A DNA stretch of 64,000 bases from a virus: positions 1 through 64,000 of the IMG/VR virus record IMGVR_UViG_3300036831_000148; one strand, given 5' to 3'. The notes under the pieces are model-generated. The model saw only the letters and a program-made list of their open reading frames with translations. It was not told where the DNA came from and did not search any database. Position numbers and translations under genes: made by a program. Below are positions 44,101 through 57,489 of the stretch, one piece after another. The stretch's first letter is position 1; each line of letters opens with the position of its first letter.

Positions 44101-45701
44101 GACCCGCCCAGCCCGTTCCCCTTGCCGCCCTGGCCGATGGCGCTGCCGCCCGCGGCCGACGTGCCGGTAGCCGAGGTCTGCGAGCCGACCGGCACCTTGA
44201 TGTGCACCACCGGCTGCTGCGGCGAGCCGCCCTTGCCTGCCTGGACCGGGTTCTGCGCCTGCTCCTGAGCCTGCTGAGCCTGCTGCCGCTGCTGGGTGAG
44301 CATCTGCTTCTGCTGCTTCTCGCGGTCGGCCTTGATCTTGTCGTAGTCAATGTCAAAGCCGAAGTCGCCCGCCAGCCGCTGCTCCAGTTCCAGCATGAAC
44401 TCGGGCGTGACGTTAGCCTGCTGTCCTGCTGTGGCGAGCTTATCGAAAGTATCCTGGATAGCCGCCTTGGCTTCCTCGGTAAGCGGGCCCCACTTGAACA
44501 GCGGGTACTTCCCGGAACCGAAGTTCCAGTCAACGAACCGCGGGAAGATGTGGTCGTTGATGACCTGCGCCATTTCCTCCAGGACGCCTTCCAGCATGAG
44601 GAAATAGGTGACATCGTCCTGCTTCCCGAAGTCGACTAGTGTGCTATCCCCCTGGCCCCCGCCCTGCTCGTTATCGAACCACTGAGCGAGAACGCTCTTT
44701 GACATCTGCGAATTGTGGTGGTTGATCAATCCCAGGAAGTCAAAGCGCGCCGCGGCCTCGTTGAGGGTCTGCACCGTCCAGTCGGCGGTGGGCAGCGCGA
44801 TGTACTGCGCGAGGCCCAACTGGGCGAGCGCCCGGATGAAGTTGTCCTTGTCCGCCTTCGGCGCATTCGGCACCATCGTGCCCACGCGCAGGCCCACGGC
44901 CGCCCTTTGCGCAGCCAGGTGGGCAATGTAGTACAGCTTTTCCTTCTTGTCGTAGTGGTAAAAAGCAGACTCGAACATGGAGACGCCGTAGAACGGGCGT
45001 TCGGCTTCCTCGTGCGCGTAGTACAGCCCGGTTTCTTTCGGGATCTTGACATCGATCGTCCGGCCCTGGAAGAAGGTCCGCTGCCGGAAGCCGTTCCACT
45101 CGCCCTGGCCGTCAACCAGGAAAGTCAGCGTCTCCGAGGGGCGCCAGTCGATCTTCCGCAGCGTCCACTTGCCCTTGTGCGGCCCGGTCTTCGGCTGCCA
45201 GTAGACCATCTCCCAGGCGCTGAACCCGTTGAAGAGGGCGAGCAGCATCTGCTTCACGAAACGGTCAAAGGAGTGGGTCATCCCGCCCTGCGCCCGCGGC
45301 GCGAACAGCAGGTCCTTGCAGAACTGGGCTTCCTCCACCCCGCCCACCACGCCGTCGGCGGGCACCACGTCCGCGTTCTTCATCGCGCTCAGCAGCGGCT
45401 TGGTGAGCAGCCGGTACAGCGCGCGGGCCTGGCCGTCGCGGCGCCGCATGGTGACCAGTTGCCGCACGGTCACCGGGTCGTCGCGGAAGATCTCCCACGA
45501 ATCGCGGTAGGGCGTGGAGAACGGGAGGAAGTACGGGACGCCGACCGCGAAGTTCTGCGCCTCCTCGGGCGGCTGCACCAGTTGCTGGTCGTCAGCGAGC
45601 TGGTAGCCCTCCTGGCCGTAGCCCTGGGAGGTGACGCCCATGCCGCCCGGGGGCTGCACCGTAGACGTGTACGAGCCCTGGCCGCCGCCTGGAGTGGTCA
45701 T
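44097..45701 (-). CDS. Portal protein (DUF935-like)
   Basis: The 534-residue protein contains VRQLVTMRRRDGQARALYRL, VKQMLLALFNGFSAWEMVYW, TGLYYAHEEAERPFYGVSMF and LHK-type segments such as AHLAAQRAAVGLRVGTMVPN, as in Mu-type DUF935 portals. The C-terminal 100 residues are Gln/Ala-rich (KQQKQMLTQQRQQAQQAQEQ). The portal ring is the DNA channel and binds terminase and connector. CGATTA lies seven bases before ATG 45701. Confidence 0.85.
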   Translation of the reverse strand: MTTPGGGQGSYTSTVQPPGGMGVTSQGYGQEGYQLADDQQLVQPPEEAQNFAVGVPYFLPFSTPYRDSWEIFRDDPVTVRQLVTMRRRDGQARALYRLLTKPLLSAMKNADVVPADGVVGGVEEAQFCKDLLFAPRAQGGMTHSFDRFVKQMLLALFNGFSAWEMVYWQPKTGPHKGKWTLRKIDWRPSETLTFLVDGQGEWNGFRQRTFFQGRTIDVKIPKETGLYYAHEEAERPFYGVSMFESAFYHYDKKEKLYYIAHLAAQRAAVGLRVGTMVPNAPKADKDNFIRALAQLGLAQYIALPTADWTVQTLNEAAARFDFLGLINHHNSQMSKSVLAQWFDNEQGGGQGDSTLVDFGKQDDVTYFLMLEGVLEEMAQVINDHIFPRFVDWNFGSGKYPLFKWGPLTEEAKAAIQDTFDKLATAGQQANVTPEFMLELEQRLAGDFGFDIDYDKIKADREKQQKQMLTQQRQQAQQAQEQAQNPVQAGKGGSPQQPVVHIKVPVGSQTSATGTSAAGGSAIGQGGKGNGLGGS

Positions 45702-46298: not shown

Positions 46299-47591
46299 TC
46301 AGCTAACGGGCGCGCCGACCAGCTCCAGGAACCCGTCGTTAACGAACTGCGTCGGGCCGAGGTAGGTCTTCCCGTTGGCATCCGACGCCACCGGGAACGC
46401 GGTCCACGCCGGGTTGCTGTAGAAGGTGCCGTGCGTCTCGGTGCCGCCCGGCAGGACAGAGTTGCCGTCAGCCAGGGTGTGGCTGAAGCCCTCCAGCTCG
46501 CTCGGGTCGGTGTTGTGGCCGTTGTACGGGTACGGCGGGGTGCCGCTCAGCGGGATGACCGTCTGGGTGTCGGCGATGGCGCCGGCGTCGGCCTCGTTGA
46601 ACGTCTTGCCTGGAATGGACACGCCGTTCTGGTAGCTGACGCCGGGGGCGCCCAGGTCGGTCGCGGAGAAGATGATCGTGCCCTGGGCGTACACGTGCCC
46701 GTGGAAAGTCGGGTGCGGGTTGGCCGCGTCGTAGAGGATGTCCAGGTCAACGGAGTTGTTGTCCGGGATTCCCGCCTTCAGCACGTCAAAGGTCGCGCCG
46801 GGGGTGTGCGCGGCCTTGAGCCAGGAAACCGACGGCACGGTACCGGCGGGCGGCTGCGGGGTACCTGCCGGCACCGTGAGAACCGAATTGACGTTGGCGC
46901 TCGTGCCCAGTTCGAATGTCGTGACACCAGACTTCACCACAGTGAAGTGGAACGTCTGGTTAGACGGGCTCGGGTGGATCGTGAACGTCGGCGACAGCAT
47001 CACGCCACCTGCAGGAATGGCCCCGCCGGGGATCACAACCGTTACCACAGCGCCAAGCGGCGGAGTCGGGCCGCTCGTCACGGTCAGGTTCGGAGACCCG
47101 GCCGTGTACGAGAGATCCGTGACCTCGTGCGTGAAGCTGAACCCGCTCGCCGAGTTGAGGCCGCTCGGGTTGACGATGCCGCCCTGGCACAGGTCGCTGT
47201 TGTTGCCAGCGGCAAGGTAGCCGGTGGCGTCTACCACGTCCATCAGGCCGCCGCCGACGTATACCAGCCCGATCTGGGCGGCCTGGCCGGTTCCCTGGTT
47301 GCACAGCCCGATGCCCGCCGCGCCGCCGATGCTCACGGTGCCGGTCACGGACGACACCGGCAGTTGCTCGATTGAGTGCTGGCCGTCCCCGCCGACCCGG
47401 CTCGCCAGGTGCGTGAAGTTGATGCTGTCGTTCTCGGCGTGGGCGTAGTAGCCGGAGATCGAGTCAGCGCCCGCCGGCGTGTACTGGACGGGGCCAACGC
47501 TGGCGCTCGCGGAGGCCGCAGCAGCCAGGCCGGCGCCCGCCACCAGGACGGGTACCGCAATGGCGGCAGCAAGCCGCCTGCCAATCTTCAT
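46299..47591 (-). CDS. Secreted protein with Sec signal peptide, 430 residues
   Basis: ATG 47591 has AGGAG seven bases upstream. The N-terminus (MKIGRRLAAAIAVPVLVAGA, then GLAAAASASASVGP) is a classic signal peptide with cleavage near residue 31. The mature part is beta-rich, Gly/Asn/Thr-rich, with GYYAHAENDSINFTHLASRV, GIGLCNQGTGQAAQIGLVYV, WLKAAHTPGATFDVLKAGIP and NPHPTFHGHVYAQGTIIFSA, and at least two Cys. It looks like a host-type extracellular protein rather than a virion part. It has its own leader and terminators on both sides (47692-47725, 46245-46280). Possible roles include superinfection exclusion or host modification; function unknown. Confidence 0.75.
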   Translation of the reverse strand: MKIGRRLAAAIAVPVLVAGAGLAAAASASASVGPVQYTPAGADSISGYYAHAENDSINFTHLASRVGGDGQHSIEQLPVSSVTGTVSIGGAAGIGLCNQGTGQAAQIGLVYVGGGLMDVVDATGYLAAGNNSDLCQGGIVNPSGLNSASGFSFTHEVTDLSYTAGSPNLTVTSGPTPPLGAVVTVVIPGGAIPAGGVMLSPTFTIHPSPSNQTFHFTVVKSGVTTFELGTSANVNSVLTVPAGTPQPPAGTVPSVSWLKAAHTPGATFDVLKAGIPDNNSVDLDILYDAANPHPTFHGHVYAQGTIIFSATDLGAPGVSYQNGVSIPGKTFNEADAGAIADTQTVIPLSGTPPYPYNGHNTDPSELEGFSHTLADGNSVLPGGTETHGTFYSNPAWTAFPVASDANGKTYLGPTQFVNDGFLELVGAPVS

Positions 47592-47842: not shown

Positions 47843-47845
47843 AAG

Positions 47846-47917
47846 TGACCCGGGGAGGACTCGAACCTCCATCCTCCGCTTAGGAGACGGTAGCCCTATC
47901 CATTGGGCGACCGGGCC
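47846..47917 (-). tRNA. tRNA-Arg(CCT)
   Basis: Acceptor GGCCCGG/CCGGGTC, D-stem GCCC/GGGC, anticodon loop CTCCTAA, T-loop TTCGAGT, discriminator A. Anticodon stem has an A27-A43 mismatch. No encoded CCA, as in all genes of the array. Confidence 0.9.
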
Positions 47918-47921
47918 GTGG

Positions 47922-47995
47922 AGGGAGAGCCGGGAGTCGAACCCGGATGTCACGTTTTGCAGACGTGCGCCTTGACGCGCCTCGGCCACACTCCC
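47922..47995 (-). tRNA. tRNA-Cys(GCA)
   Basis: Loop CTGCAAA on stem CACGT/ACGTG, T-loop TTCGACT, discriminator U as expected for Cys. One acceptor mismatch (6-67). Confidence 0.9.
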
Positions 47996-48085
47996 ATGGA
48001 CGGGGCTGCACCTGAGTGCGGCAGCCTGCCCCGCTTTACTGGCCCACCGCTACCCGCTGCCAGGTCGCGGCGGTGAACTCAGTCG

Positions 48086-48158
48086 TGCGCCCGAAGGGAC
48101 TCGAACCCCCGACACCCGGCTTCGGAAGCCGGCGCTCTGTCCACTGAGCTACGGGCAC
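48086..48158 (-). tRNA. tRNA-Arg(CCG)
   Basis: Acceptor GTGCCCG/CGGGCGC, stem CCGGC/GCCGG with loop TTCCGAA, T-loop TTCGAGT, discriminator A. Confidence 0.92.
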
Positions 48159-48163
48159 CTGAG

Positions 48164-48246
48164 AGGCGCGTGCAGGATTCGAACCTGCGTAGGGCAGAGC
48201 CGGCTGCTTTACAGGCAGCTCCCGTTATCCGCTTGGGTAACGCGCC
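48164..48246 (-). tRNA. tRNA-Tyr(GTA)
   Basis: Perfect acceptor GGCGCGT/ACGCGCC, loop CTGTAAA on GCTGC/GCAGC, long variable arm as in bacterial Tyr tRNA, T-loop TTCGAAT. Discriminator reads U rather than the usual A. Confidence 0.88.
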
Positions 48247-48249
48247 GTG

Positions 48250-48322
48250 GGGTTGGTAACGAGAATCGAACTCGTATATCTGGAGCCACAGTCCAGCGCT
48301 CTGCCGTTGAGCTATACCGACC
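48250..48322 (-). tRNA. tRNA-His(GTG)
   Basis: Loop CTGTGGC on CTGGA/TCCAG, T-loop TTCGATT, discriminator C. The usual G at position -1 is not encoded (base 48323 gives C). Confidence 0.85.
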
Positions 48323-48323
48323 G

Positions 48324-48397
48324 TGTCCAGTGAGGGATTCGAACCCCCGACGCCTGCCGTGTGGAGGCAGCGCTCTCCCGGGCTGAGCTAACCGGAC
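48324..48397 (-). tRNA. tRNA-Val(CAC)
   Basis: Acceptor GTCCGGT/ACTGGAC, loop TCCACAC on CTGCC/GGCAG, T-loop TTCGAAT, discriminator A. Only one base separates it from tRNA-His. Confidence 0.88.
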
Positions 48398-48457
48398 ATG
48401 AAGGACGGCAGGGGGCTGAGCTCGAAGGCGGTGTCAGCCTGCTCACCCGTCGTCCAG

Positions 48458-48530
48458 TACACGCGAGAGGACTCGAACCTCCAACGCACGGCTCCGTAGG
48501 CCGCTGCTCTATCCGTTGAGCTACGCGTGC
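48458..48530 (-). tRNA. tRNA-Arg(ACG)
   Basis: Acceptor GCACGCG/CGCGTGT, loop CTACGGA on GCGGC/GCCGT, T-loop TTCGAGT, discriminator A. A34 would need deamination to inosine. Confidence 0.9.
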
Positions 48531-48534
48531 TTGG

Positions 48535-48606
48535 TGGGCGTACCTGGTGCCGACCCAGGGACCTCGTCTGCGTCAGAGACGCGCTCTCCCGCTGAGCTAT
48601 ACGCCC
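48535..48606 (-). tRNA. tRNA-Val(GAC)
   Basis: Acceptor GGGCGTA/TACGCCC, loop CTGACGC on CGTCT/AGACG. T-loop GTCGGCA departs from TTCRANY, as also in Ser(AGA) and Thr(CGT). Confidence 0.85.
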
Positions 48607-48614
48607 TCGTTCTG

Positions 48615-48642
48615 TTGACCAGCGTCAAGAGGCGGGTACCGT
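48615..48642 (+). promoter_or_regulatory. Plus-strand promoter for a leaderless gene, with inverted repeat
   Basis: TTGACC (48615-48620), 16 bases, TACCGT (48637-48642), seven bases, then GTG 48650. TTGAC-CAGC-GTCAA (48615-48628) overlaps the -35 box. Confidence 0.6.
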
Positions 48643-48649
48643 TAGTTAC

Positions 48650-48790
48650 GTGGCCTACCTCGTCGTCCTCGGCATCGGCATCTGGATTGGTGCCGTCGCC
48701 GGCCTCAAGTACGGTGCCCGCCGTGCCTTCACCCGGCTCGGCCGGGCCGAGCACGGCGAGCGCATGCGCCGCTCAGGGTTCGGCAGCTAG
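48650..48790 (+). CDS. Small membrane protein inside the tRNA array, 46 residues
   Basis: GTG 48650 opens MAYLVVLGIGIWIGAVAGLK, a transmembrane helix, followed by a basic helix YGARRAFTRLGRAEHGERMR. There is no ribosome site; the GTG is seven bases after a TACCGT -10 box, where transcription should begin, so the mRNA is probably leaderless. Third positions are G/C-rich. It runs against all tRNA genes and stops one base before tRNA-Asp. It may be regulated by the GntR protein through the inverted repeat at its -35 box (inference). Confidence 0.65.
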   Translation: MAYLVVLGIGIWIGAVAGLKYGARRAFTRLGRAEHGERMRRSGFGS

Positions 48791-48863
48791 CGGTCCTGAC
48801 GGGATTTGAACCCGCGGCCCTCCGCTCGACAGGCGGACGCTCTACGCACTGAGCTACAAGACC
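48791..48863 (-). tRNA. tRNA-Asp(GTC)
   Basis: Acceptor GGTCTTG/CAGGACC, loop CTGTCGA on TCCGC/GCGGA, T-loop TTCAAAT, discriminator G as expected. Confidence 0.92.
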
Positions 48864-48875
48864 ATGTGTACTGCG

Positions 48876-48948
48876 CTCTCCGACCAGGACTCGAACCTGG
48901 AACCTGCTGATTAACGGTCAGTCGCGCTGCCGATTGCGCCACCGGAGA
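48876..48948 (-). tRNA. tRNA-Asn(GTT)
   Basis: Acceptor TCTCCGG/TCGGAGA, loop CCGTTAA, T-loop TTCGAGT, discriminator G. Confidence 0.9.
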
Positions 48949-49146
48949 TCGTAAACGCCGGGGTACCGTGCCGTTCCCGGCTCCTGGTGATACTCCGCCC
49001 GCTGGACCCGGGCCAGGCTGCAGTTCCCGGCTGTATCCGGCAGGCCCAGGCCCGCCCGAGTAAGGCCCCCGGTTGTTTAGCCCTTATCCAGCAGGGCCAG
49101 CCACGTGTTCCCCGGGGCTTTCGCCGGCCGCCAGTGCCGGGCCTCG

Positions 49147-49222
49147 TAGCGGGGGCAGGATTTGAACCTGCGTATATGCCAGGCTATGAACCTGGTGAGC
49201 GACCAAACTGCTCGACCCCGCG
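49147..49222 (-). tRNA. tRNA-Met(CAT), initiator-like
   Basis: Acceptor CGCGGGG/CCCCGCT leaves C1 unpaired with U72, as in initiator tRNAs (C1-A72 usually). Loop TTCATAG on CCAGG/CCTGG; the three G:C pairs typical of initiators are only partly present. T-loop TTCAAAT. Confidence 0.75.
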
Positions 49223-49303
49223 CCGCGCGGGGCTTAACCGGACGTGACCCGGAAGCGCACCCGCTGCTTGCGCCACGGCACCAGGGTAAGTCCGGCGCCG
49301 TCG

Positions 49304-49377
49304 TAACCCCAACCGGATTCGAACCGGTGTCGCCCTGCTTGAAGGGCAGGCGTCCTGAGCCGCTAGACGATGGGGCC
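49304..49377 (-). tRNA. tRNA-Glu(TTC)
   Basis: Acceptor GGCCCCA/TGGGGTT, loop CCTTCAA on CCTGC/GCAGG, T-loop TTCGAAT, discriminator A. Confidence 0.9.
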
Positions 49378-49469
49378 GTGCGTCCTGCCGAGCGGATTTC
49401 AGCCAGCTCCCGGCGCGGACCTCAGAATCCTGCTTTGGCGTGGCCGTCTCCCGCGTAGCAGGCTCTGCG

Positions 49470-49543
49470 TGGTCCTGGCGGGATTCGAACCCGCGCTTTC
49501 CTGCTTGAGGGGCAGACGGCTTAGACCGCTAGCCGACAGGACC
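49470..49543 (-). tRNA. tRNA-Glu(CTC)
   Basis: Perfect acceptor GGTCCTG/CAGGACC, loop CCCTCAA, T-loop TTCGAAT, discriminator A. Confidence 0.9.
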
Positions 49544-49548
49544 ATGTG

Positions 49549-49621
49549 TGCGCCGGGGAGGTCCCGAACCCCCGCCGCGCCGCTTAGAAAACGGCCGTTC
49601 TATCCGCTGAACTACCGGCGC
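49549..49621 (-). tRNA. tRNA-Arg(TCT)
   Basis: Perfect acceptor GCGCCGG/CCGGCGC, loop TTTCTAA on GCCGT/GCGGC, T-loop TTCGGGA, discriminator A. Confidence 0.88.
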
Positions 49622-49625
49622 GCAG

Positions 49626-49698
49626 TGGGCCGCCCGGGACTTGAACCCGGAACACTCGGATTAAAGGTCCGCCGCTCTGCCATTTGCGCTAGCGGCCC
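49626..49698 (-). tRNA. tRNA-Lys(TTT)
   Basis: Perfect acceptor GGGCCGC/GCGGCCC, loop CCTTTAA, T-loop TTCAAGT, discriminator A. Confidence 0.9.
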
Positions 49699-49702
49699 GT
49701 GG

Positions 49703-49776
49703 TAGCGGTAGCCGGGCTCGAACCGGCGGCCCTCCCATTATGAGTGGGACGCTCTGACCGACTGAGCTATACCGCC
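49703..49776 (-). tRNA. tRNA with anticodon CAT (elongator Met, or Ile if modified)
   Basis: Acceptor GGCGGTA/TACCGCT, loop CTCATAA on TCCCA/TGGGA, T-loop TTCGAGC. Elongator type; lysidine-modified Ile identity cannot be excluded. Confidence 0.85.
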
Positions 49777-49777
49777 G

Positions 49778-49852
49778 TAGGCTGCCGTGGAGTCGAACCA
49801 CGCTGCTAACTGCGTATCAGGCAGTCCCCGTCAACCGGCTGGGTCGCAGCCC
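49778..49852 (-). tRNA. tRNA-Ile(GAT)
   Basis: Acceptor GGGCTGC/GCAGCCT, loop CTGATAC on ACTGC/GCAGT, T-loop TTCGACT. One base from the neighbouring CAT tRNA. Confidence 0.88.
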
Positions 49853-49897
49853 TCGCTTGAAACTCGACAGCAACAGTTACCGTGTGTACGCTGTCGG

Positions 49898-50044
49898 ATG
49901 CGAGCAGTAAAAGACGCTGCTCGTAAAGGCAAGGCACCGTCACCCTCCAGGGGCGCGGCCCGTCAGGCCTTTGGCTGCATTACGGAGGCGGCGCTCGTCG
50001 GCCCACTACAGGCGCCGCCTCACGCCAGCCTCGCAGAGGGTTGA
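49898..50044 (+). CDS. Possible small plus-strand protein, 48 residues
   Basis: Frame MRAVKDAARKGKAPSPSRGA and onward, in the 181-base gap between tRNA-Ile and tRNA-Ser. TTGAAA-N15-TACCGT (49857-49883) upstream resembles the other plus-strand promoter. There is no ribosome site, and the end overlaps tRNA-Ser(AGA). Weak case. Confidence 0.25.
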   Translation: MRAVKDAARKGKAPSPSRGAARQAFGCITEAALVGPLQAPPHASLAEG

Positions 50045-50119
50045 GGTGCCGACCCCCACGGCCCTCCCGGGCCGCCGCCTGTTTTCTAGACAGGATGTCC
50101 CGCCGGGGACGAACCCTCC
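50034..50119 (-). tRNA. tRNA-Ser(AGA)
   Basis: Acceptor GGAGGGT/ACCCTCT, stem CCTGT/ACAGG with loop CTAGAAA, long variable arm, discriminator G. Anticodon AGA is unusual in bacteria. T-loop GTCGGCA is divergent. Confidence 0.75.
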
Positions 50120-50189
50120 AGGTATCCGCGGTCACCCTCGGGCAGGTGCTCGGCCAGCCCCGACACCGGCCAGGATCGCGGCATCCAGG

Positions 50190-50273
50190 CAGAGAGCGGA
50201 CGACTCGAACGCCACGGCTTGCACCGCGAGCCCGCTAGCAACGGGTCCTGGCCGCCTGGCCAGTTCACTCTCC
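50190..50273 (-). tRNA. tRNA-Ser(GCT)
   Basis: Acceptor GGAGAGT/GCTCTCT, loop TTGCTAG, long variable arm, T-loop TTCGAGT, discriminator G. Confidence 0.85.
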
Positions 50274-50277
50274 AGGT

Positions 50278-50319
50278 GCAGGACTTTTTGAAACCGGGCG
50301 CAACCCGGGGGCGTCCTGC
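50278..50319 (-). other. Minihelix-like stem-loop between two tRNA genes
   Basis: GCAGGAC/GTCCTGC form a perfect 7-bp outer stem followed on the minus strand by ACC; inside is a CCGGG/CCCGG hairpin with a 5-base loop. It resembles an acceptor stem plus one arm, but has no anticodon arm. Confidence 0.4.
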
Positions 50320-50345
50320 GTGCCCTCGCCGCCTGCGCGGCCGAG

Positions 50346-50430
50346 TGGGCGGGGAGGGATTCGAACCCTCACGTCCCTCCCGGGACACACGGTCCTGAGC
50401 CGTGCGTGGCTGCCGTTACACCACTCGCCC
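50346..50430 (-). tRNA. tRNA-Leu(CAG)
   Basis: Acceptor GGGCGAG/CCCGCCC, loop CTCAGGA on CACGG/CCGTG, long variable arm, T-loop TTCGAAT, discriminator A. Confidence 0.9.
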
Positions 50431-50514
50431 ATGCTCCCCGGGCTGTTCTCCCTTGACTGGTCCGGGCCCGGGGGGCCGGCAGGGAGCCAGGTCGGCGCTC
50501 GCGCGCTGAGCTTC

Positions 50515-50536
50515 CCGGCCTCCTGCAGGAGGCCGG
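50515..50536. repeat. 22-base perfect palindrome
   Basis: CCGGCCTCCTG and its exact inverse without a spacer, in the 168-base gap between tRNA-Leu(CAG) and tRNA-Gly(GCC). Possibly a processing or stability element; no gene in this gap. Confidence 0.7.
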
Positions 50537-50598
50537 TCCGCCTGGAAGTGTCTGGGTGCTCCCCGGCTGCGCGTCCGCTAGCCGGCTTGCCCCCATAG

Positions 50599-50671
50599 AG
50601 CCGACGACGGGATTCGAACCCGCGGCCCTCACCTTGGCAAGGTGATGCGCTACCAACTGCGCCACGTCGAC
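50599..50671 (-). tRNA. tRNA-Gly(GCC)
   Basis: Acceptor GTCGACG/CGTCGGC, loop TTGCCAA on TCACC/GGTGA, T-loop TTCGAAT, discriminator U as expected for Gly. Confidence 0.92.
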
Positions 50672-50710
50672 AAGCCGGACGGCCAGCCGCCGTCCGGGGT
50701 TCACCGGGCG

Positions 50711-50929
50711 TTAGCCGCCCTCCACAATCTCCCTGACCGAGGTCCGGGACCGGCCGGGCACCTGGATGCCGGACACCTCGCCGTCCGCCGCGGCGAACGT
50801 GAGGTGCACGGTCGTGCCCCTGAACTTCAGGGTGCACCCCACCGCCTCCGGGTGCACGCGGACCGTCAGGTCCACGTTGACGTCGCCCACTCCTACTGCG
50901 GCGGCGCCGCGGTTGCTCGTGCTGGCCAT
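50711..50929 (-). CDS. Hypothetical 72-residue protein within the tRNA array
   Basis: ATG 50929 overlaps the stop of the 29-residue frame (TGATG). The sequence has a beta-rich core (DVNVDLTVRVHPEAVGCTLK, GTTVHLTFAAADGEVSGIQV) and ends SRTSVREIVEGG. Together with the two upstream cistrons it forms a small operon inserted among tRNA genes. Unknown. Confidence 0.6.
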   Translation of the reverse strand: MASTSNRGAAAVGVGDVNVDLTVRVHPEAVGCTLKFRGTTVHLTFAAADGEVSGIQVPGRSRTSVREIVEGG

Positions 50930-51018
50930 CAGGTTGCCTCCTCCACCGTGACCGTGACCGACGCCTCAGCAGTGTTGCCTGCGGCGTCGGTCGCGGTGGC
51001 GGTAATGACCAGGTCCAC
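50929..51018 (-). CDS. 29-residue frame duplicating part of its neighbour
   Basis: GTG 51018 overlaps the preceding TAG (TAGTG), and the stop overlaps the next ATG. It reads MDLVITATATDAAGNTAEAS and VTVTVEEAT, closely repeating residues about 53-81 of the 109-residue protein (SLVISATATDADGNTAAASV). It looks like a tandem domain duplication cut off by a stop, yet the coupling signals are intact. Confidence 0.5.
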   Translation of the reverse strand: MDLVITATATDAAGNTAEASVTVTVEEAT

Positions 51019-51347
51019 TAGCTGGGCGGCGTCACGGTCGTGGTGAGGACCGCCGTGCCGGTGCCGTTGGACAGGGTGTTGGACTGCTCGGTGTAGGTGT
51101 CGCCGAAGGAGTCGCTCGCGGCGACGTCCATGGACTCGCTGGCCTGCTCCACCACGGTCACGTTCACCGAGGCCGCAGCCGTGTTGCCGTCGGCGTCGGT
51201 CGCGGTGGCGGAGATGACCAGGGAGACCGGGTTGGACGCGCTGTCGGCGTAGGCCGCCGTCAGGGTCAGCGTCTGGCCGGCCGTGTAGCTGTCAGCGTCA
51301 GTGGTCAGGGTCAGCGTCGGCGTGCCGGGGGCAGGGGGCGTGGTCAT
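51018..51347 (-). CDS. Beta-sandwich (E-set/bacterial Ig-like) protein, 109 residues
   Basis: ATG 51347 has GGAGAGG upstream. The protein begins MTTPPAPGTPTLTLTTDADS and continues YTAGQTLTLTAAYADSASNP, SLVISATATDADGNTAAASV and a Ser/Thr-rich end. The DxDGN loop between strands is typical of Ig-like or cadherin-type domains that mediate surface adhesion. There is no signal peptide. It may decorate virions. It is the first of three coupled cistrons in the middle of the tRNA array. Confidence 0.65.
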   Translation of the reverse strand: MTTPPAPGTPTLTLTTDADSYTAGQTLTLTAAYADSASNPVSLVISATATDADGNTAAASVNVTVVEQASESMDVAASDSFGDTYTEQSNTLSNGTGTAVLTTTVTPPS

Positions 51348-51419
51348 GGGGTTCCTCTCCTGGAAAACCTGGGTCCCCACGCTAATCGCCACCAGCCCGC
51401 CGTGTCCGGCGAACGCGAG

Positions 51420-51493
51420 AGCCTCCACCCGGAGCCGAACCGGGGACCTCGCCCGTACCAAGGGCGTGCTCGTTCCAACTGAGCTATAGAGGC
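51420..51493 (-). tRNA. tRNA-Thr(GGT)
   Basis: Acceptor GCCTCTA/TGGAGGC, loop TTGGTAC on CGCCC/GGGCG, T-loop TTCGGCT, discriminator U. Confidence 0.9.
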
Positions 51494-51535
51494 ATGCCAG
51501 GAACGCGCCTTCACGCGACAGGTGACTAATGAAGG

Positions 51536-51608
51536 CTCCGGGGGCCGGGCTCGAACCGGCGTGCCCTTGGTCCAAAGCCAAGGCGGGATGCCGTCAACCC
51601 ACCCCGGA
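51536..51608 (-). tRNA. tRNA-Gln(TTG)
   Basis: Perfect acceptor TCCGGGG/CCCCGGA, loop CTTTGGA on CTTGG/CCAAG, T-loop TTCGAGC, discriminator G. Confidence 0.9.
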
Positions 51609-51613
51609 CCGAG

Positions 51614-51686
51614 CTGGGCGACAGGGACTTGAACCCTGACCCGCGGGACCATAACCCGCTGCTCTGCCGTTTTGAGCTAGCGCCCA
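51614..51686 (-). tRNA. tRNA with anticodon ATG (His codon reader by rule)
   Basis: Stem GCGGG/CCCGC is perfect and the loop TTATGGT gives anticodon ATG. T-loop TTCAAGT, discriminator G. A34 in a His tRNA is abnormal and the His discriminator C is absent, so identity is uncertain. Acceptor mismatch at 7-66. Confidence 0.65.
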
Positions 51687-51689
51687 CTG

Positions 51690-51762
51690 AGCCGGTTACC
51701 GGACTCGAACCGGTCGCCCGCAGCTTACAAGGCTGCTGCTCTGCCAGGTGAGCTAAACCGGC
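51690..51762 (-). tRNA. tRNA-Thr(TGT)
   Basis: Perfect acceptor GCCGGTT/AACCGGC, loop CTTGTAA on GCAGC/GCTGC, T-loop TTCGAGT, discriminator U. Confidence 0.92.
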
Positions 51763-51766
51763 AAGG

Positions 51767-51852
51767 TGTCCGGGGCGGGACTTGAACCCGCAGCGCCCGT
51801 AGCGGGCACCAGCACCTCAAGCTGGCGCGTCTGCCTATTCCGCCACCCGGAC
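51767..51852 (-). tRNA. tRNA-Leu(GAG)
   Basis: Perfect acceptor GTCCGGG/CCCGGAC, loop TTGAGGT on CCAGC/GCTGG, long variable arm, T-loop TTCAAGT, discriminator A. Confidence 0.9.
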
Positions 51853-51982
51853 AAAAGCGGGAGACCCGGTGACCGGACCCCGGCGCGCACCGGGGCGGCT
51901 GCCCTCGCTCCACCTGCGTGACCGCCTTGCGCGAGGCGGCTTCCGGTGGCGAGTCACCTGGGGATGCTGCACGTCTCCCTAG

Positions 51983-52050
51983 AGCCGCTGCCCGGTGCCG
52001 ACCCGGGTCGCCCGCCGTACGAAGGCGGGGCCGCAGCCGTGCGCGGCGGC
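51983..52050 (-). tRNA. tRNA-Thr(CGT) with a short D-arm
   Basis: Acceptor GCCGCCG/CAGCGGC (one mismatch), stem CCGCC/GGCGG with loop TTCGTAC, T-loop GTCGGCA, discriminator U. The D-region is only about 15 bases, so the gene is 68 bases long and may be weakly functional. Confidence 0.6.
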
Positions 52051-52100
52051 AGGCCTCCGGGCGTTTGCCCCCGCGCAAGCGCTTACGGGGGTTATAGGCA

Positions 52101-52189
52101 CCGGAGGTTGCGGTTGCTCTGGGCCACTGAGCTACCGGACGCCCCTTCCAGGGAGACCGGGCGGGATTCGGACCCGCGACCTTCCGCTG
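52101..52189 (-). tRNA. Candidate circularly permuted tRNA gene W
   Basis: A 3' half (52189-52153: GCGGA anticodon-stem strand, variable AGGTC, T-arm GCGGG-TCCGAAT-CCCGC, acceptor CCGGTCT) precedes a 5' half (52141 downward: CGTCCGG, TA, D-arm GCTC-AGTGGCCCA-GAGC, A26, ACCGC, then the loop start AACCT). The halves pair 4/5 in the anticodon stem and 5/7 in the acceptor, and are joined by a CCC/GGG hairpin. It directly follows tRNA-Gln(CTG). Confidence 0.4.
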
Positions 52190-52261
52190 CTGGAGTACCT
52201 GGACTCGAACCAAGACCGGCGGGTCCAGGGCCCGTCGCGCTGCCAATTACGCCATACTCCA
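52190..52261 (-). tRNA. tRNA-Gln(CTG)
   Basis: Perfect acceptor TGGAGTA/TACTCCA, loop CCCTGGA, T-loop TTCGAGT, discriminator G. Confidence 0.9.
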
Positions 52262-52360
52262 AGGCGGGAGGGCTCTTTGCTGACCCTCCGACTAACGGCC
52301 TTGCTCCCCGGCTCCCGGGGGACCGGACAGGGATTTGCAGGACGGCCCTGTCAGCCGTTG

Positions 52361-52436
52361 TAGGCGAGACGGGAATCGAACCCGCAAGAAGACGCGGGTT
52401 TTGAAGCCGCCGCATATGCCGTTCTGCTACTCGCCC
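52361..52436 (-). tRNA. tRNA with ambiguous anticodon, CAA (Leu) or TCA (opal)
   Basis: Acceptor GGGCGAG/CTCGCCT, T-loop TTCGATT. Stem GCGGC/CCCGC (one C-C mismatch) gives loop TTCAAAA and anticodon CAA; the alternative loop CTTCAAA fits the loop consensus and gives TCA but leaves a poor stem. The short variable loop is wrong for Leu. Confidence 0.6.
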
Positions 52437-52440
52437 GAAG

Positions 52441-52512
52441 TACCCCGCCAGGGACTCGAACCCTGACCTCACGGATTAAGAGTCCGCTGCTCTGCCATTG
52501 AGCTAACGAGGC
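52441..52512 (-). tRNA. tRNA-Lys(CTT)
   Basis: Acceptor GCCTCGT/GCGGGGT, loop CTCTTAA on GCGGA/TCCGT, T-loop TTCGAGT, discriminator A. Confidence 0.9.
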
Positions 52513-52780
52513 TTGAAGCCCGGTGCCCAGCCCGCTCCCCCTGCCGTCCGGACTCGAACCGGGAGGTGCGCACCCTTGCTGGTAACCACTCGCCTGAGAC
52601 CGGGCCGCAGCCCCGCTGGCGGCCGCCAGCGGAGAGCAGGCCGGCCCCGTGCCAGCAGCAGAGGGGGCGGGCTGGGAACCGGGAAGAACAACCCGGACCT
52701 GTTCCGGCCTCACGGCACTTATGCGAGGTGCCGTAGTCTTTTGGCCAGCCGGTTTCCGGGGGCGGTATGCATCCCGCCAG
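52513..52780. other. 268-base gap with degenerate tRNA-like sequence
   Basis: It contains an isolated T-arm-like CCCGG-TTCGAGT-CCGGA (near 52546-52563), a 20-base palindrome (52613-52632) and an ACGGCAC/GTGCCGT hairpin (52712-52734). I could not fold a complete tRNA or find a gene. Confidence 0.45.
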
Positions 52781-52853
52781 AGCCCCACCGGGGAATTGAA
52801 CCCCGCTAACCAGCTTGGAAGGCTGGCACATCGCCACTGAATGCTTGTAGGGC
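52781..52853 (-). tRNA. tRNA-Gly(TCC)
   Basis: Acceptor GCCCTAC/GTGGGGC, loop CTTCCAA on CCAGC/GCTGG, T-loop TTCAATT, discriminator U. Its 5' 48 bases overlap the end of the LAGLIDADG gene; the TAG stop of that gene lies in the tRNA variable region. Confidence 0.9.
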
Positions 52854-53264
52854 AAGATCTACTTCCGGCCATAGCTCTCGAATGCGTGCGCGCCGGCGCG
52901 CACCAAGCCAGGGCCACACTTTCAAGGTCAGCCACTCACGGTGAGGCCGAGCCGCAACCTGCCAAATCCAGGCCGTCTTATAGCCACGAACGCTCTCCTC
53001 GCGGGTGATGCGGCCGACACCAGTCACGCTGAACAATCGCTCAACGATGTCCTCGTCCGTCATTCGAACAGCTACTACCCACCGCCCCTGTCGGTTCGGA
53101 CCACCCGTCCAGCAGCCCTCACCCTCCAAGATGCCTGCAATCCAGGCAACCTCGGGAGCAGTGACCGCCTCACGGGGGCTGCCGATGTCGGTGTAACGGC
53201 ACTTTCGGCACCGTTCCGCCGTATACCTCTTACGAGTGCCACAAGCACAAAGGTTGTACCCCAT
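52806..53264 (-). CDS. LAGLIDADG-type homing endonuclease overlapping tRNA-Gly
   Basis: The 152-residue protein has an N-terminal Cys cluster (CACGTRKRYTAERCRKCRYT, a zinc ribbon) and one LAGLIDADG motif (EVAWIAGILEGEGCWTGGPN, near residues 38-55). It then has the beta segment GRWVVAVRMTDEDIVERLFS and helices VTGVGRITREESVRGYKTAW. A single motif implies a homodimer. The last 16 codons lie within tRNA-Gly(TCC), so tRNA and protein share DNA. The gene probably spread into the array by cutting a tRNA locus. A/T content is higher than in neighbours. Confidence 0.85.
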   Translation of the reverse strand: MGYNLCACGTRKRYTAERCRKCRYTDIGSPREAVTAPEVAWIAGILEGEGCWTGGPNRQGRWVVAVRMTDEDIVERLFSVTGVGRITREESVRGYKTAWIWQVAARPHREWLTLKVWPWLGARRRARIRELWPEVDLALQAFSGDVPAFQAG

Positions 53265-53282
53265 ACCTGTGTTACGTGCAGG

Positions 53283-53355
53283 TGGTCACGGGGGCGCCCG
53301 AATCCCCGGCATGCTGCTTTTCAGGCAGCCGCTCTACCATCTGAGCTACGCGACC
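53283..53355 (-). tRNA. tRNA-Phe(GAA)
   Basis: Acceptor GGTCGCG/CGTGACC, loop CTGAAAA on GCTGC/GCAGC, T-loop TTCGGGC, discriminator A. Confidence 0.9.
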
Positions 53356-53475
53356 GTGGATGACAGCGCACCCAGCCCGCCCGGGGAACCCGGTACCCCG
53401 GCACGAACTCGGGACAGGCGTCCCTGCTTCGGCCGACCACCGGGTTATGCCGGCTCCTGCCTAGGCGCTGCCAAG

Positions 53476-53546
53476 TCGGGATACAGGGAGTCGAACCCCG
53501 GCTGACTGGCCCCAGACCAGGCGCGCTTCCGTTACGCAATATCCCG
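53476..53546 (-). tRNA. tRNA-Pro(TGG)
   Basis: Perfect acceptor CGGGATA/TATCCCG, loop TCTGGGG with anticodon TGG (position 33 is C instead of U), T-loop TTCGACT, discriminator A. Confidence 0.8.
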
Positions 53547-53620
53547 TCACAGGCGTTCAGACCGCTGAACTACCAGGCCGAAGCCCTCGCCCGGAGTTGA
53601 ACCGGGATTTCCTGCTTGCG
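53547..53620 (-). tRNA. Candidate circularly permuted tRNA gene Y
   Basis: These 74 bases exactly fill the space between tRNA-Pro(GGG) and tRNA-Pro(TGG). The 3' half comes first: CGCAA, GCAGG, AAAT, T-arm CCCGG-TTCAACT-CCGGG, acceptor CGAGGGC, discriminator U. After two bases the 5' half follows: GGCCTGG, TA, D-arm GTTC-AGCGGTCT-GAAC, G26, CCTGT, GA. Joining the ends gives a 5-bp anticodon stem (CCTGT/GCAGG), a 7-base loop GACGCAA (anticodon CGC) and an acceptor with 5/7 pairs (two G-G mismatches). Confidence 0.5.
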
Positions 53621-53696
53621 TCGGGCTGGGCGGATTCGAACCGCCGTCCTCCCGGCCCCCAGCCGGGCGCGCTGAGCCAAACTGCGCTACAGCCCG
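53621..53696 (-). tRNA. tRNA-Pro(GGG)
   Basis: Perfect acceptor CGGGCTG/CAGCCCG, loop CTGGGGG on CCCGG/CCGGG, T-loop TTCGAAT, discriminator A. Confidence 0.92.
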
Positions 53697-53818
53697 ATGT
53701 TTCGCGCGGGGTACCATCTCCCGCTCCCTGGGTCGCTAACCACTACCAGCCAGTGCCGTACGCTCACCAGCTGGCCCGGCCCGTCCGGCATGCGCCGTCA
53801 GGACCCCAGGCCCTTACG

Positions 53819-53893
53819 TCGGGGTGGGGAGATTCGAACTCCCGACCTCTACGTCCCGAACGTAGCGCGCTAGCCAAGCTGCGCCACACCCCG
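53819..53893 (-). tRNA. tRNA-Pro(CGG)
   Basis: Perfect acceptor CGGGGTG/CACCCCG, loop TTCGGGA on CTACG/CGTAG, T-loop TTCGAAT, discriminator A. Confidence 0.92.
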
Positions 53894-54005
53894 ATGGAGC
53901 CGCATGTTTTACCCAGTCCGGGCGGTTGGAGGCCCGCCGGCTCGTCAGGTTACCTTTTGCCCGGTGATCAACTCCGGAATAGGATGCCTTGCCTGGCATG
54001 CGACG

Positions 54006-54079
54006 TGGAGCTTGCGGGAATCGAACCCGCGGCCTCTGCATTGCGAGTGCAGCGCACTACCAAGCTGTGCTAAAGCCCC
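54006..54079 (-). tRNA. tRNA-Ala(CGC)
   Basis: Acceptor GGGGCTT/AAGCTCC, loop CTCGCAA on CTGCA/TGCAG, T-loop TTCGATT, discriminator A. Confidence 0.92.
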
Positions 54080-54221
54080 AGATGCGGCGCTCTGCCATTG
54101 AGCTACCCGGATCAGTCAGCAGGCCGGCTGCCGGGGCGTTCCGCTACGCGTACTAGCCCGGCGCTCGGCGCCCGCTGCCTTCGCATCTCCGGGACGGGGG
54201 TCGAACCCGCGTCTCCCGCCG
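54080..54221 (-). tRNA. Candidate circularly permuted tRNA gene X
   Basis: A 3' half (54221-54186: GGCGG, variable GAGAC, T-arm GCGGG-TTCGACC-CCCGT, acceptor CCCGGAG, discriminator A) lies directly after tRNA-Ala(GGC). A 73-base spacer follows, then a 5' half (54112-54080: ATCCGGG, TA, D-arm GCTC-AATGGCA-GAGC, G26, CCGCA, TCT) directly before tRNA-Ala(CGC). Acceptor halves pair 6/7 and anticodon stem halves 4/5. The loop is short unless CCA at the end of tRNA-Ala is shared. Confidence 0.45.
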
Positions 54222-54294
54222 TGGAGCCTAGGGGAGTCGAACCCCTGACCTTTTGCATGCCATGCAAACGCGCTACCTGCTGCGCCAAGGCCCC
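54222..54294 (-). tRNA. tRNA-Ala(GGC)
   Basis: Acceptor GGGGCCT/AGGCTCC, stem TTTGC/GCAAA with loop ATGGCAT, T-loop TTCGACT, discriminator A. Confidence 0.88.
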
Positions 54295-54483
54295 AGGGCG
54301 CGACAGCGGGACCGCGGTGTGAACACGGTCCCGCTGCCACGTCAGACCCCGCCGCCCGCCGAAGCGGGCAACGGGAGAACTCGCGGCGGGCTGGCAACCC
54401 GCCGCCTTACGATGCTCACGCTGTGGAGATGTCAAGGTTCGTTGACATTCACCCGCTCGGGCTCTCGCCGTCGCCGGTGGTCG
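54295..54483. other. 189-base gap with three hairpins and a possible promoter
   Basis: Contains a 12-bp hairpin (about 54302-54338), GCCCGC-TTCG-GCGGGC on the minus strand (54354-54369) and CGGCGGG/CCCGCCG (about 54384-54405). Then comes TGTCAA-N6-TTGACA (54430-54447), whose minus-strand TTGACA is followed after 16 bases by ATCGTA. No gene; the promoter may boost the array downstream of tRNA-Trp. Confidence 0.4.
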
Positions 54484-54555
54484 CAAGGACGGGAGGGGTC
54501 GAACCTCCGCCACTGGTTTTGGAGACCAGCGCTCTGCCTGTTGAGCTACGTCCCT
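54484..54555 (-). tRNA. tRNA-Trp(CCA)
   Basis: Acceptor AGGGACG/CGTCCTT, loop CTCCAAA on CTGGT/ACCAG, T-loop TTCGACC, discriminator G as expected for Trp. It is the first tRNA of the array in transcription order. Confidence 0.92.
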
Positions 54556-55524: not shown

Positions 55525-57489
55525 TCACTGCGCGTAGTCCCCGCTGACGCTGCCCCAGTCGTCCAGGTAGCTGGACCCGTACTCGAAGCCCGGCCGGTCA
55601 CCGGGCAGGAACTGGTCGGGACCGAGCATCACCAGCGTCCCCGGCATTCCCGCGGGCGAGGGGATGTCCGCCTCCGGCCCGTAGAACGAGACCTGGCCGG
55701 GATAGGCGCGCTTGCCGTTCGGGTCCTCCTGGCCCCCGGCCTCCAGCGCGCCGCAGGCCGCGCCGGCGAGGGAGTCGGCCTCGTCCTTGGACGAGTCGCC
55801 CAGGTGGTCGATCTTGCCGTTCGGCAGCCGGGACAGGCCGAGCAGCTCCACCACGGTCAGCTCCCGGGCCGGCATCTGCAGCCTGCCCTCGTACATGAGG
55901 TCGCGCAGGGTGCGCCAGCCCTCCTCCGACACGTCGGTGGAGAACCGGTCGGTCTCGATGCCGTGGCTCTCCAGGATCTGCATGCTGTCCTTGGACTGCC
56001 ACTGGTCAAAGGTGAAGCGGACCACCGGGAAACCCATCCGGCGCAGCTCCAGGCACAGCATCCGCGCCCAGCGGATCTGGATCTCCATCGGCGGCACCGC
56101 GCCGGGGCTGGACTCGTAGCTGATGGTGAAGTCCACCTTCACCACCGGGCGGCGCTCCTGGACCTGGATCTCCAGGCCGTCCTCGTCGTAGCCGGTCAGG
56201 GCGTGATCCTGCCAGCGCTTGACGTGGGCCATCGACACGCCGGCCCGGTCGCCGGTGGCCGCCAGGTCGGCGTGCATCGCGTACAGCGCGCCCTTCACCG
56301 GGAACAGCTCAGGGCTGAAGGTGTACTGCGGCTTCCAGGTGGCGCCCTCGCGCACGTAGGAGACGCTCACCGGCGGCATGACGTACTCGGTCAGGCAGTC
56401 GCGGATCGCCGCCTCGTTGGCGAAGTACGGGTTGATGGCGCGCCGCGGGCGGCACTCGTACTTGGCCTCCGCCAGCGCCGGGTCCTTCTCGTAGTCCTCG
56501 GCGAACGACTCCTTGCCCTTGATCCGCGGGTTCGCCTCCCAGGTGGCGAGCGGCCCGGACACGTAGTAGCGGCTGGCCTCGCCCTTGGCCTCGTTGTCGG
56601 CCTTGCCCTTCGCCACCAGTTGCTGGATGGTGCTGCCCAGGTAGCGCGGGTAGGAGATGTGGACGTTCTTGAACGTCTCCGGGAACCGCGTAGTGGCGCT
56701 GGTCCGGATCATGTCCAGGATCGCCTCGGCCGAACTGGAGGACTCGCGCTGCTTGGCCCCGCCTGACTTGGCGAGCTCGGCGGCCGAGCGGAACGCGTCG
56801 ATCTCGTCGGCGATCCCCAGGATCAGGTTCAGCCCCTCCTGGCTGTCGGCGTCGCTGTGCCCGGAGACCGCCTCGATGTTGTGCTCGAACCGGATGGTGT
56901 CCAGCAGCGCGGTGGTCCGCTCGCCGCGGCTGCCCCGGCGCTGCCGCTCGGCGGCGTCCAGGATGTCCACGCCCTGGCGCTGGAACCAGCAGCCGGGCCG
57001 GCCGACGGCGCGGCGCATGGGGGCGAAGAACGCGCGCTGCGCCTGCTTCGAAGATGATGCGACGTTCAGGACGTGGATCGAATCCTGCTCGGGCATCCGG
57101 TAGTAAAGCTGCGGACTCTTCAGGCACAGCAGCAGGTAGCAGACCCGCATGGCGATCATCCGGCAGGTGTGGTCCTTGCCTCCGCCCTTGCCCCACTCCA
57201 GCTCCAGGAAGTTGACCATCCTGGTCGGCTGGCTCCAGTAGTCCCGGACCTTCCGCTCGGCGCTGCCCGCCAGCAGGGCGTAGGTGTCCAGGTAGTAGAC
57301 CCGCTCGGCGTGCCGCACCGCCTCGTACTGGACGTCGCTCAGCGGCGGGTTCGCCAGGTAGGCGCGGTCCTGCACGAACACGTCAAGCGGGACCGGCTCC
57401 TCCTCGAAGATGCTGGTCCCGCTTACGGAGGTGCCAGTGCCGCCGACCGCCCCGAGCAGGGCCGCCGCGGCAGCGCCGGCTGACGCCAC
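55525..57489 (-). CDS. Terminase large subunit
   Basis: The 654-residue protein has an N-terminal ATPase with a Walker A-like LEWGKGGGKDHTCRM (near residue 100), a Walker B LILGIADEIDAF (near 228) and coupling-type segment SYPRYLGSTI. The C-terminal nuclease shows three acidic sites: YAMHADLAATGDRAGVSMAH, VVRFTFDQWQSKDSMQILES and IDHLGDSSKDEADSLAGAAC. It packages DNA through the portal. A small subunit is not evident. It is the first of the strictly virion genes and is followed by the GntR gene after 160 bases. Confidence 0.92.
   Translation of the reverse strand: MASAGAAAAALLGAVGGTGTSVSGTSIFEEEPVPLDVFVQDRAYLANPPLSDVQYEAVRHAERVYYLDTYALLAGSAERKVRDYWSQPTRMVNFLELEWGKGGGKDHTCRMIAMRVCYLLLCLKSPQLYYRMPEQDSIHVLNVASSSKQAQRAFFAPMRRAVGRPGCWFQRQGVDILDAAERQRRGSRGERTTALLDTIRFEHNIEAVSGHSDADSQEGLNLILGIADEIDAFRSAAELAKSGGAKQRESSSSAEAILDMIRTSATTRFPETFKNVHISYPRYLGSTIQQLVAKGKADNEAKGEASRYYVSGPLATWEANPRIKGKESFAEDYEKDPALAEAKYECRPRRAINPYFANEAAIRDCLTEYVMPPVSVSYVREGATWKPQYTFSPELFPVKGALYAMHADLAATGDRAGVSMAHVKRWQDHALTGYDEDGLEIQVQERRPVVKVDFTISYESSPGAVPPMEIQIRWARMLCLELRRMGFPVVRFTFDQWQSKDSMQILESHGIETDRFSTDVSEEGWRTLRDLMYEGRLQMPARELTVVELLGLSRLPNGKIDHLGDSSKDEADSLAGAACGALEAGGQEDPNGKRAYPGQVSFYGPEADIPSPAGMPGTLVMLGPDQFLPGDRPGFEYGSSYLDDWGSVSGDYAQ

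What the first reader, a model, noticed from the sequence alone, without database searches (positions are those of the whole stretch)
53547..53620. A 74-base circularly permuted tRNA gene that exactly fills the gap between two tRNA-Pro genes
Seen: after the discriminator base of tRNA-Pro(GGG) come 39 bases with every element of a tRNA 3' half. Two bases later come 33 bases with every element of a 5' half, ending where tRNA-Pro(TGG) begins. Processing of the flanking tRNAs would free a piece whose ends lie in the anticodon loop. Joining them gives a 5-bp stem CCTGT/GCAGG and a 7-base loop GACGCAA. Known: permuted tRNA genes with this order occur in some algae and archaea; I know of none described in phages. 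Inference: this phage may make a tRNA by circularisation. Weak points are two G-G acceptor mismatches and A instead of U at position 33.
Basis: partly seen in the sequence, partly recalled or inferred. Interest (0 to 1): 0.93.

Follow-up and report, generated by a model that had tools for sequence, protein, structure and literature searches.

The report
Phage tRNA mimic in permuted order
Between two ordinary tRNA genes this phage encodes a small RNA that folds like a tRNA with its two halves swapped and its amino-acid end closed off; related phages carry many more, so it is a real, selected tRNA look-alike of the bacterial Y RNA kind rather than a working tRNA made by circularisation.

Summary
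In detail: on the minus strand, 53620->53547 holds a tRNA 3' half (39 nt), 2 nt and a 5' half (33 nt), filling the gap between tRNA-Pro(GGG) and tRNA-Pro(TGG). It is not chance (0 of 1000 shuffles of the array's spacers reach its score) and not alone. The same tRNA array holds two more 3'-half/5'-half modules (54221-54080 and 52187-52110), and related phages carry at least 12 further ones. Their acceptor and anticodon-position stems are kept by compensatory changes. Joined loops lack a consistent U33, anticodon or length. Acceptor stems in relatives run to 8-9 bp and end in GNRA or UUCG loops. Some modules sit on an outer stem that rules out an anticodon loop. No RNA ligase was found. The architecture (T arm, capped acceptor hairpin, D arm, closing stem) is that of bacterial YrlA Y RNA, a known circularly permuted tRNA mimic. 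But the Rfam YrlA threshold is not met, there is no basal Rsr stem here, and no Ro/Rsr gene was found in this phage or its relatives. I call it a YrlA-like capped tRNA mimic, embedded between tRNAs and probably released by their processing. Its trans function is inferred only.

The parts
53547..53620 (-). Element 1 (the finding): 74-nt permuted tRNA-like module between tRNA-Pro(GGG) and tRNA-Pro(TGG)
   Evidence: sequence; fold; shuffle test; 72/73 identical in L015
53582..53620 (-). 3' half of element 1: free CGCAA, anticodon-position strand GCAGG, T arm CCCGG-TTCAACT-CCGGG, acceptor strand CGAGGGC, T
53547..53579 (-). 5' half of element 1: acceptor strand GGCCTGG, TA, D arm GTTC-AGCGGTCT-GAAC, G, anticodon-position strand CCTGT, free GA
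54080..54221 (-). Element 2: permuted module between tRNA-Ala(GGC) and tRNA-Ala(CGC), with a 74-nt structured insert at the acceptor end carrying a motif shared with two relatives (AGTACGCnTnGCGGAAnGCC)
52110..52187 (-). Element 3: permuted module after tRNA-Gln(CTG); best Rfam YrlA match in the window (32 bits over 52092-52201)
53620..53696 (-). tRNA-Pro(GGG), upstream neighbour; its 3' processing would set the 5' end of element 1
53475..53546 (-). tRNA-Pro(TGG), downstream neighbour; its RNase P cleavage would set the 3' end of element 1
47845..54555 (-). Array of 37 ordinary tRNA genes that holds the three modules, between the portal (44097-45701) and terminase-like (55525-57489) genes

Best explanation
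The element is a capped tRNA mimic: an RNA in the order T arm, closed acceptor hairpin, D arm, closed at its base by an anticodon-position stem. It is one of three in this phage's tRNA array. It is most likely cut out as a linear 74-nt RNA when RNase P and the 3' end nuclease mature the flanking tRNA-Pro genes, and keeps tRNA elbow and acceptor shape without being able to carry an amino acid or decode. It most probably acts in trans as a tRNA look-alike, binding or distracting tRNA-recognising proteins (in YrlA, the tRNA-like domain binds PNPase; tRNA-targeting nucleases are another possible target). Shown here: fold, covariation, recurrence in relatives, capping, lack of ligase and Rsr matches. 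Inferred: release by flanking processing, lack of aminoacylation, trans function and target.
For: Three modules in one array at scores never reached in 1000 shuffles. Scanning 27 + 50 related loci gave further modules in the same spacers (Ala-Ala, Pro-Pro, Gln-Thr, Ala-Pro) and downstream of the array. In an alignment of nine relatives' modules (none from the window) 96.7% of cells pair against 76.8% in shuffles, 32 double-sided changes against 8.2, and 14 of 20 pairs covary. Matched acceptor strands pair 6.2/7 against 3.8/7 when halves are swapped between elements; 0 of 100000 permutations as good, with the caveat that elements were picked partly on pairing. A search for orphan T and D arms that ignores pairing gives the same picture. 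Capping: CCGGCGAGA-GAGA-TCTCGCCGG (L018), CCGGGGGC-GAAA-GCCCCTGG (L016), CCTCCG-UUCG-CGGAGG (L050). L016, L050 and L064 modules sit on a second outer stem. YrlA is a circularly permuted tRNA mimic (PMC11472068; PMC8394870). Other tRNA-array actinophages carry YrlA-like modules, two of them with Ro-like genes.
Against: No expression data. Element 1 scores only 13.9 bits with Rfam YrlA and has one of the weakest acceptors of the set. Its fold is no more stable than shuffled sequence. About half of the comparable relatives have another hairpin, or nothing, in the same spacer, so the module is dispensable there. Joined loops of exactly 7 nt recur in several modules (window element 1, L014, L018, L021), which a mimic does not require.
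Confidence: 0.68

Rival explanations
1. The modules are only structured spacers (insulators) between tRNAs: self-closed RNAs that keep neighbouring tRNAs folding and processed cleanly, with tRNA-like shape because they were recruited from tRNA sequence, and with no role after excision.
For: Inter-tRNA spacers of these phages are more structured than shuffles (mean z -1.9) and closed end-to-end more often (47% against 31%); non-tRNA-like hairpins replace the module in some relatives.
Against: A plain hairpin would do; preserved T-loop, D-loop G-G and acceptor pairing by compensatory change, near-identity of element 1 in L015 while tRNAs diverged, and modules standing about 2.4 kb away from any tRNA (L016, L050) ask for more than spacing.
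Confidence: 0.2
2. A genuine circularly permuted tRNA gene: the freed piece is ligated in the anticodon loop, then opened at the acceptor by RNase P and the 3' nuclease, giving a decoding tRNA.
For: Order of halves, exact fit between processing sites, 5-bp anticodon-position stem, joined 7-nt loop in several modules; known permuted tRNA genes have intervening sequences of 1-74 nt (PMC3978253).
Against: A33 here, C33 in L014/L018, no shared anticodon, loops of 4-9 nt elsewhere, two G-G acceptor mismatches kept in L015; 8-9 bp capped acceptors and outer stems in relatives; no RtcB, PF09414 or PF09511 ligase in this phage record and no RtcB or PF09414 in relatives; the element starts and ends at mature tRNAs, leaving no sequence for a bulge-helix-bulge.
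Confidence: 0.07
3. Decayed remnants of two ordinary tRNAs left by deletions in the array.
For: tRNA content of these arrays turns over quickly; window element 3 lies where relatives have tRNA-Thr(CGT).
Against: Unrelated remnants would not pair: matched halves pair far better than swapped halves, both acceptor and anticodon-position stems covary, L015 keeps the permuted module AND tRNA-Thr(CGT) after tRNA-Gln, and element 1 is the most conserved piece compared in the array.
Confidence: 0.05

Closest known systems
YrlA (bacterial Y RNA, Rfam RF02553)
   Same: T arm, capped acceptor-like hairpin, TA, D arm in that order, i.e. a circularly permuted tRNA mimic (PMC11472068); conserved GCGGGTTCGA...GGTAGCTCA core; modules in L016, L050, L064 also sit on an outer stem.
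   Different: Below the Rfam gathering score (13.9, 32 and 23 bits for the three window modules, 37.9 for L016; threshold 69); no Rsr-binding basal stem recognised; several copies per phage placed between tRNA genes; no Ro/Rsr gene found in this phage group.
YrlA-like RNAs of tRNA-array actinophages (Gordonia phage Boopy, Microbacterium phage A3Wally, Streptomyces phage Annadreamy; mycobacteriophages reported by others)
   Same: A permuted tRNA-like module in the same genome as a large tRNA array (52.1, 40.8 and 37.8 bits); Boopy's and Annadreamy's lie inside the array.
   Different: Boopy and A3Wally also encode a Ro-like (TROVE) protein; the window phage and 11 relatives' records do not match TROVE.
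Circularly permuted tRNA genes of red/green algae and Thermofilum (PMC3978253)
   Same: 3' half precedes 5' half; intervening sequence at the acceptor; junction in the anticodon loop.
   Different: Those encode normal decoding tRNAs with a bulge-helix-bulge at the junction, and mature through splicing endonuclease and ligation; none of this is met here.
tmRNA and other tRNA-like RNAs
   Same: tRNA elbow reused for a non-decoding RNA.
   Different: Not permuted in this way, aminoacylated; no tmRNA features in the element (cmscan matches near the modules are to the T arm only).

Membership tests
YrlA / bacterial Y RNA | tRNA-like module in permuted order (T arm, capped acceptor-like hairpin, D arm) | tested here: met
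   covariation
YrlA / bacterial Y RNA | Rfam RF02553 gathering score of 69 bits | tested here: not met
   13.9 bits (element 1), 32 (element 3), 18-23 (element 2); ordinary tandem tRNAs reach 23.6
YrlA / bacterial Y RNA | long basal stem of the RNA ends that binds Rsr | tested here: not met
   element 1 ends 5 and 2 nt outside a 5-bp stem, directly at mature tRNAs; an outer stem exists only in the relatives' modules away from tRNAs
YrlA / bacterial Y RNA | Rsr/Ro (TROVE) protein partner encoded | tested here: not met
   no PF05731 in G000 or 11 relatives' records; a host partner cannot be excluded
YrlA / bacterial Y RNA | binding of PNPase by the tRNA-like domain | not testable with these tools
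   needs biochemistry
circularly permuted tRNA gene | 3' half upstream of 5' half, both with canonical arms | tested here: met
circularly permuted tRNA gene | joined anticodon loop of 7 nt with U33 and a usable anticodon | tested here: not met
   7 nt but A33 here (GACGCAA); other modules have C33 or loops of 4-9 nt
circularly permuted tRNA gene | 7-bp acceptor stem that can be opened and given CCA | tested here: not met
   5/7 pairs here, minimum-energy fold capped by UUCG; relatives have 8-9 bp stems capped by GAAA/GAGA or a UUCG cap
circularly permuted tRNA gene | bulge-helix-bulge at the junction and splicing/ligation enzymes | tested here: not met
   no leader or trailer remains outside the halves; no RtcB, PF09414, PF09511 in the phage record; host enzymes unknown
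circularly permuted tRNA gene | circular RNA intermediate and mature tRNA in cells | not testable with these tools
   no RNA data

The most novel reading that the evidence does not exclude
These phages make several true circular RNAs or tRNAs: RNase P and the tRNA 3' nuclease free pieces whose ends meet in an anticodon-like loop (7 nt in window element 1, L014, L018 and L021), and a host ligase closes them, giving permuted tRNAs or stable circular tRNA decoys, which would be the first I know of in bacteria or phages.
Probability: 0.1. Interest if true: 0.9.

Novelty: new variant of a known kind. Interest (0 to 1): 0.52.

Why it matters
It shows that phage tRNA arrays hide a second class of gene that tRNA finders skip: capped, permuted tRNA mimics, up to three per array and apparently freed by the tRNAs beside them. 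If they act in trans they add to the ways phages manage the host tRNA pool or tRNA-targeting defences, and they give a Ro-free setting in which to ask what the tRNA-like half of a Y RNA does by itself. It also warns that a permuted tRNA shape is not enough to claim a permuted tRNA gene.

Tried and rejected
A covariance model of nine relatives' modules (R1) finds its training modules and window element 3, but ordinary tandem tRNAs (3' half of one plus 5' half of the next) also reach 50 bits, so it does not separate element 1; I relied on a scan that masks canonical tRNAs. Rfam YrlA has the same background, up to 23.6 bits here and hits in 9-13 of 14 control genomes. Looking for the tRNA each module came from gave no single consistent isoacceptor. 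A DNA scan with the element's core found only L015's contig; the protein at 46299-47591 found no relatives. A terminase scan of bacterial genomes gave only one weak match (31% over about 64 residues), so the host is unknown. No sigma-70 promoter-like or terminator-like site around the element. Modules at L074:9716 and L082:3197 were left out of the main argument because their context is unclear. A first version of the shuffle test lacked padding and was discarded (replaced).

Full report
What is there. The window is part of a 146,268-base virus record (G000). On the minus strand, 47845-54555, ARAGORN finds 37 tRNA genes, between a portal gene (44097-45701) and a terminase-like gene (55525-57489). 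The finding fills the 74-base gap between tRNA-Pro(GGG) and tRNA-Pro(TGG) exactly as described.

Chance. I wrote a scan that looks for a T arm followed by a D arm, scores acceptor and anticodon-position pairing, and ignores anything inside a canonical tRNA. In the window's array it gives three modules: 53615-53549 (score 43), 54220-54083 (43) and 52187-52110 (38). In 1000 dinucleotide shuffles of all 21 longer spacers nothing reached 38. In about 1.2 million bases of related loci, both strands, the only hits at 36 or above that did not look like modules scored 36.5.

Relatives. The terminase and portal proteins brought in 27 and 50 loci of related phages; the ten checked carry arrays of 15-37 tRNAs in nearly the same order. 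They carry permuted modules in the Ala-Ala, Ala-Pro, Pro-Pro and Gln-Thr spacers (L014, L015, L016, L018, L021, L036), before tRNA-Phe in L057, and, in L016, L050 and L064, at a second site (about 2.4 kb past the last tRNA in L016 and L050). Orphan T arms in the arrays start 9-14 nt after an upstream tRNA when a module is present.

Selection. In nine relatives' modules 14 of 20 base pairs show changes on both sides; 96.7% of cells pair against 76.8% in shuffles and 38-51% when strands are slid. With all 16 distinct modules read in exact register, pair 29-41 shows four Watson-Crick types and 16/16 standard pairs, and acceptor pairs 3 and 5 show four types each. Swapping halves between elements drops acceptor pairing from 6.2 to 3.8 of 7. 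Element 1 is 72/73 identical in L015, though the tRNAs of the two phages average 76%. Either strong selection or a recent transfer of this piece explains that.

Why not a tRNA gene. Joining the free ends gives GACGCAA here (A33, anticodon CGC, already served by the array's own tRNA-Ala(CGC)), TCTCGGC and TCTCAGC in L014 and L018 (C33), ATAACGA in L021, and loops of 4 (window element 2) or 9 (L036) elsewhere (read). No anticodon is shared. Acceptor hairpins in several relatives are 8-9 bp or capped by GAGA, GAAA or UUCG, and the minimum-energy fold of element 1 also ends in UUCG; the loop is UCCG in L015, so the tetraloop itself is not conserved. The Ala-Ala modules of the window, L014 and L015 carry an acceptor-end insert with a shared 20-nt motif, again not a sequence one would expect to be cut away. 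L016, L050 and L064 modules stand on a second stem of about 9 bp outside the anticodon-position stem. No RtcB, PF09414 or PF09511 was found in this record; relatives lack RtcB and PF09414. A host ligase cannot be excluded, since the host is unknown. Short or long intervening sequence alone is not an argument, as known permuted tRNA genes range from 1 to 74 nt (PMC3978253).

What it works like. Bacterial YrlA is a circularly permuted tRNA mimic by structure (PMC11472068); its tRNA-like domain binds PNPase and its basal stem binds Rsr (PMC8394870). Rfam's YrlA model aligns T arm, capped hairpin and D arm of all three window modules in this order, but far below threshold. L016's module scores 37.9 bits. 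Among known phages with tRNA arrays, Gordonia phage Boopy has a 52-bit YrlA-like RNA and a Ro-like gene next to the array, Microbacterium phage A3Wally has both too, and Streptomyces phage Annadreamy has the RNA inside its array without a TROVE match. Ro-like genes are also reported from cluster C mycobacteriophages and Streptomyces BE2 phages (PMC9583779, PMC13191466). The window phage and 11 relatives' records lack TROVE. So I describe the element as YrlA-like and do not file it as YrlA.

How it probably works. Inferred chain: the array is transcribed; the flanking tRNA-Pro genes are matured; their 3' and 5' cuts leave a linear 74-mer that folds as a capped, permuted tRNA with 5 and 2 unpaired end bases. 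It should be seen by proteins that read the tRNA elbow or acceptor shape but cannot be charged. Targets could be PNPase as for YrlA, tRNA-modifying enzymes, or host nucleases that attack tRNAs; phage tRNAs have been proposed or shown to counter such defences (PMC10264068, PMC11555353, abstracts seen). None of these steps is shown here.

Remaining doubts. The same spacer in other relatives holds a different hairpin or almost nothing, so the module is exchangeable, and spacers in these arrays are in general more structured than shuffles. A pure spacer role therefore keeps about one chance in five. Several joined loops of exactly 7 nt keep the circularisation idea alive at a low level.

Noticed in passing
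L016:20113-20500, L064:1185-1450, L050:4050-4310, L021:19979-20300: Tandem repeats of about 100-150 nt of a structured RNA starting GGCCATnGG...GCTTCCTTC and ending GAAxATAGC..., past the tRNA array; in L016, L050 and L064 one copy hosts a permuted tRNA module in its loop, and other copies hold a T-arm-like hairpin (e.g. CCCAGGTTCGAATCCTGGG). Not found in the window.
   Followed up: partly
window 53355-53474 (minus), also L014 (two copies) and L036: A spacer RNA with closed ends and the conserved palindromic core GGGGTACCGGGTTCCCCGG sits between tRNA genes, in different spacers in different phages.
   Followed up: partly
L020:13212, L036:12974, L060:92: Another conserved spacer RNA, CATGTGTAGAGGGCCGTGACGGGTACCTCAGCGG, occupies the Ala-Ala spacer of L020 and L036, where other relatives have a permuted tRNA module.
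   Followed up: no
L057:50-193: Two permuted tRNA-like modules head to tail, separated by only 3 nt, directly before tRNA-Phe.
   Followed up: partly
window 52806-53264 (minus): ORF with an HNH homing-endonuclease family match (phrog_5046, E 7.7e-17) that lies between tRNA-Phe and tRNA-Gly and overlaps the tRNA-Gly gene.
   Followed up: no
window 51613-51686 and 50033-50119 (minus): ARAGORN calls tRNA-His with anticodon ATG and tRNA-Ser with anticodon AGA, both unusual for bacteria-type decoding.
   Followed up: no
MZ150783 95379-95879, 104382-104443 and 107089-108087: Microbacterium phage A3Wally carries, with its tRNA array, an RNA ligase, a Ro-like (TROVE) protein and a YrlA-like RNA: a possible phage-borne RNA repair/quality-control set.
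   Followed up: partly
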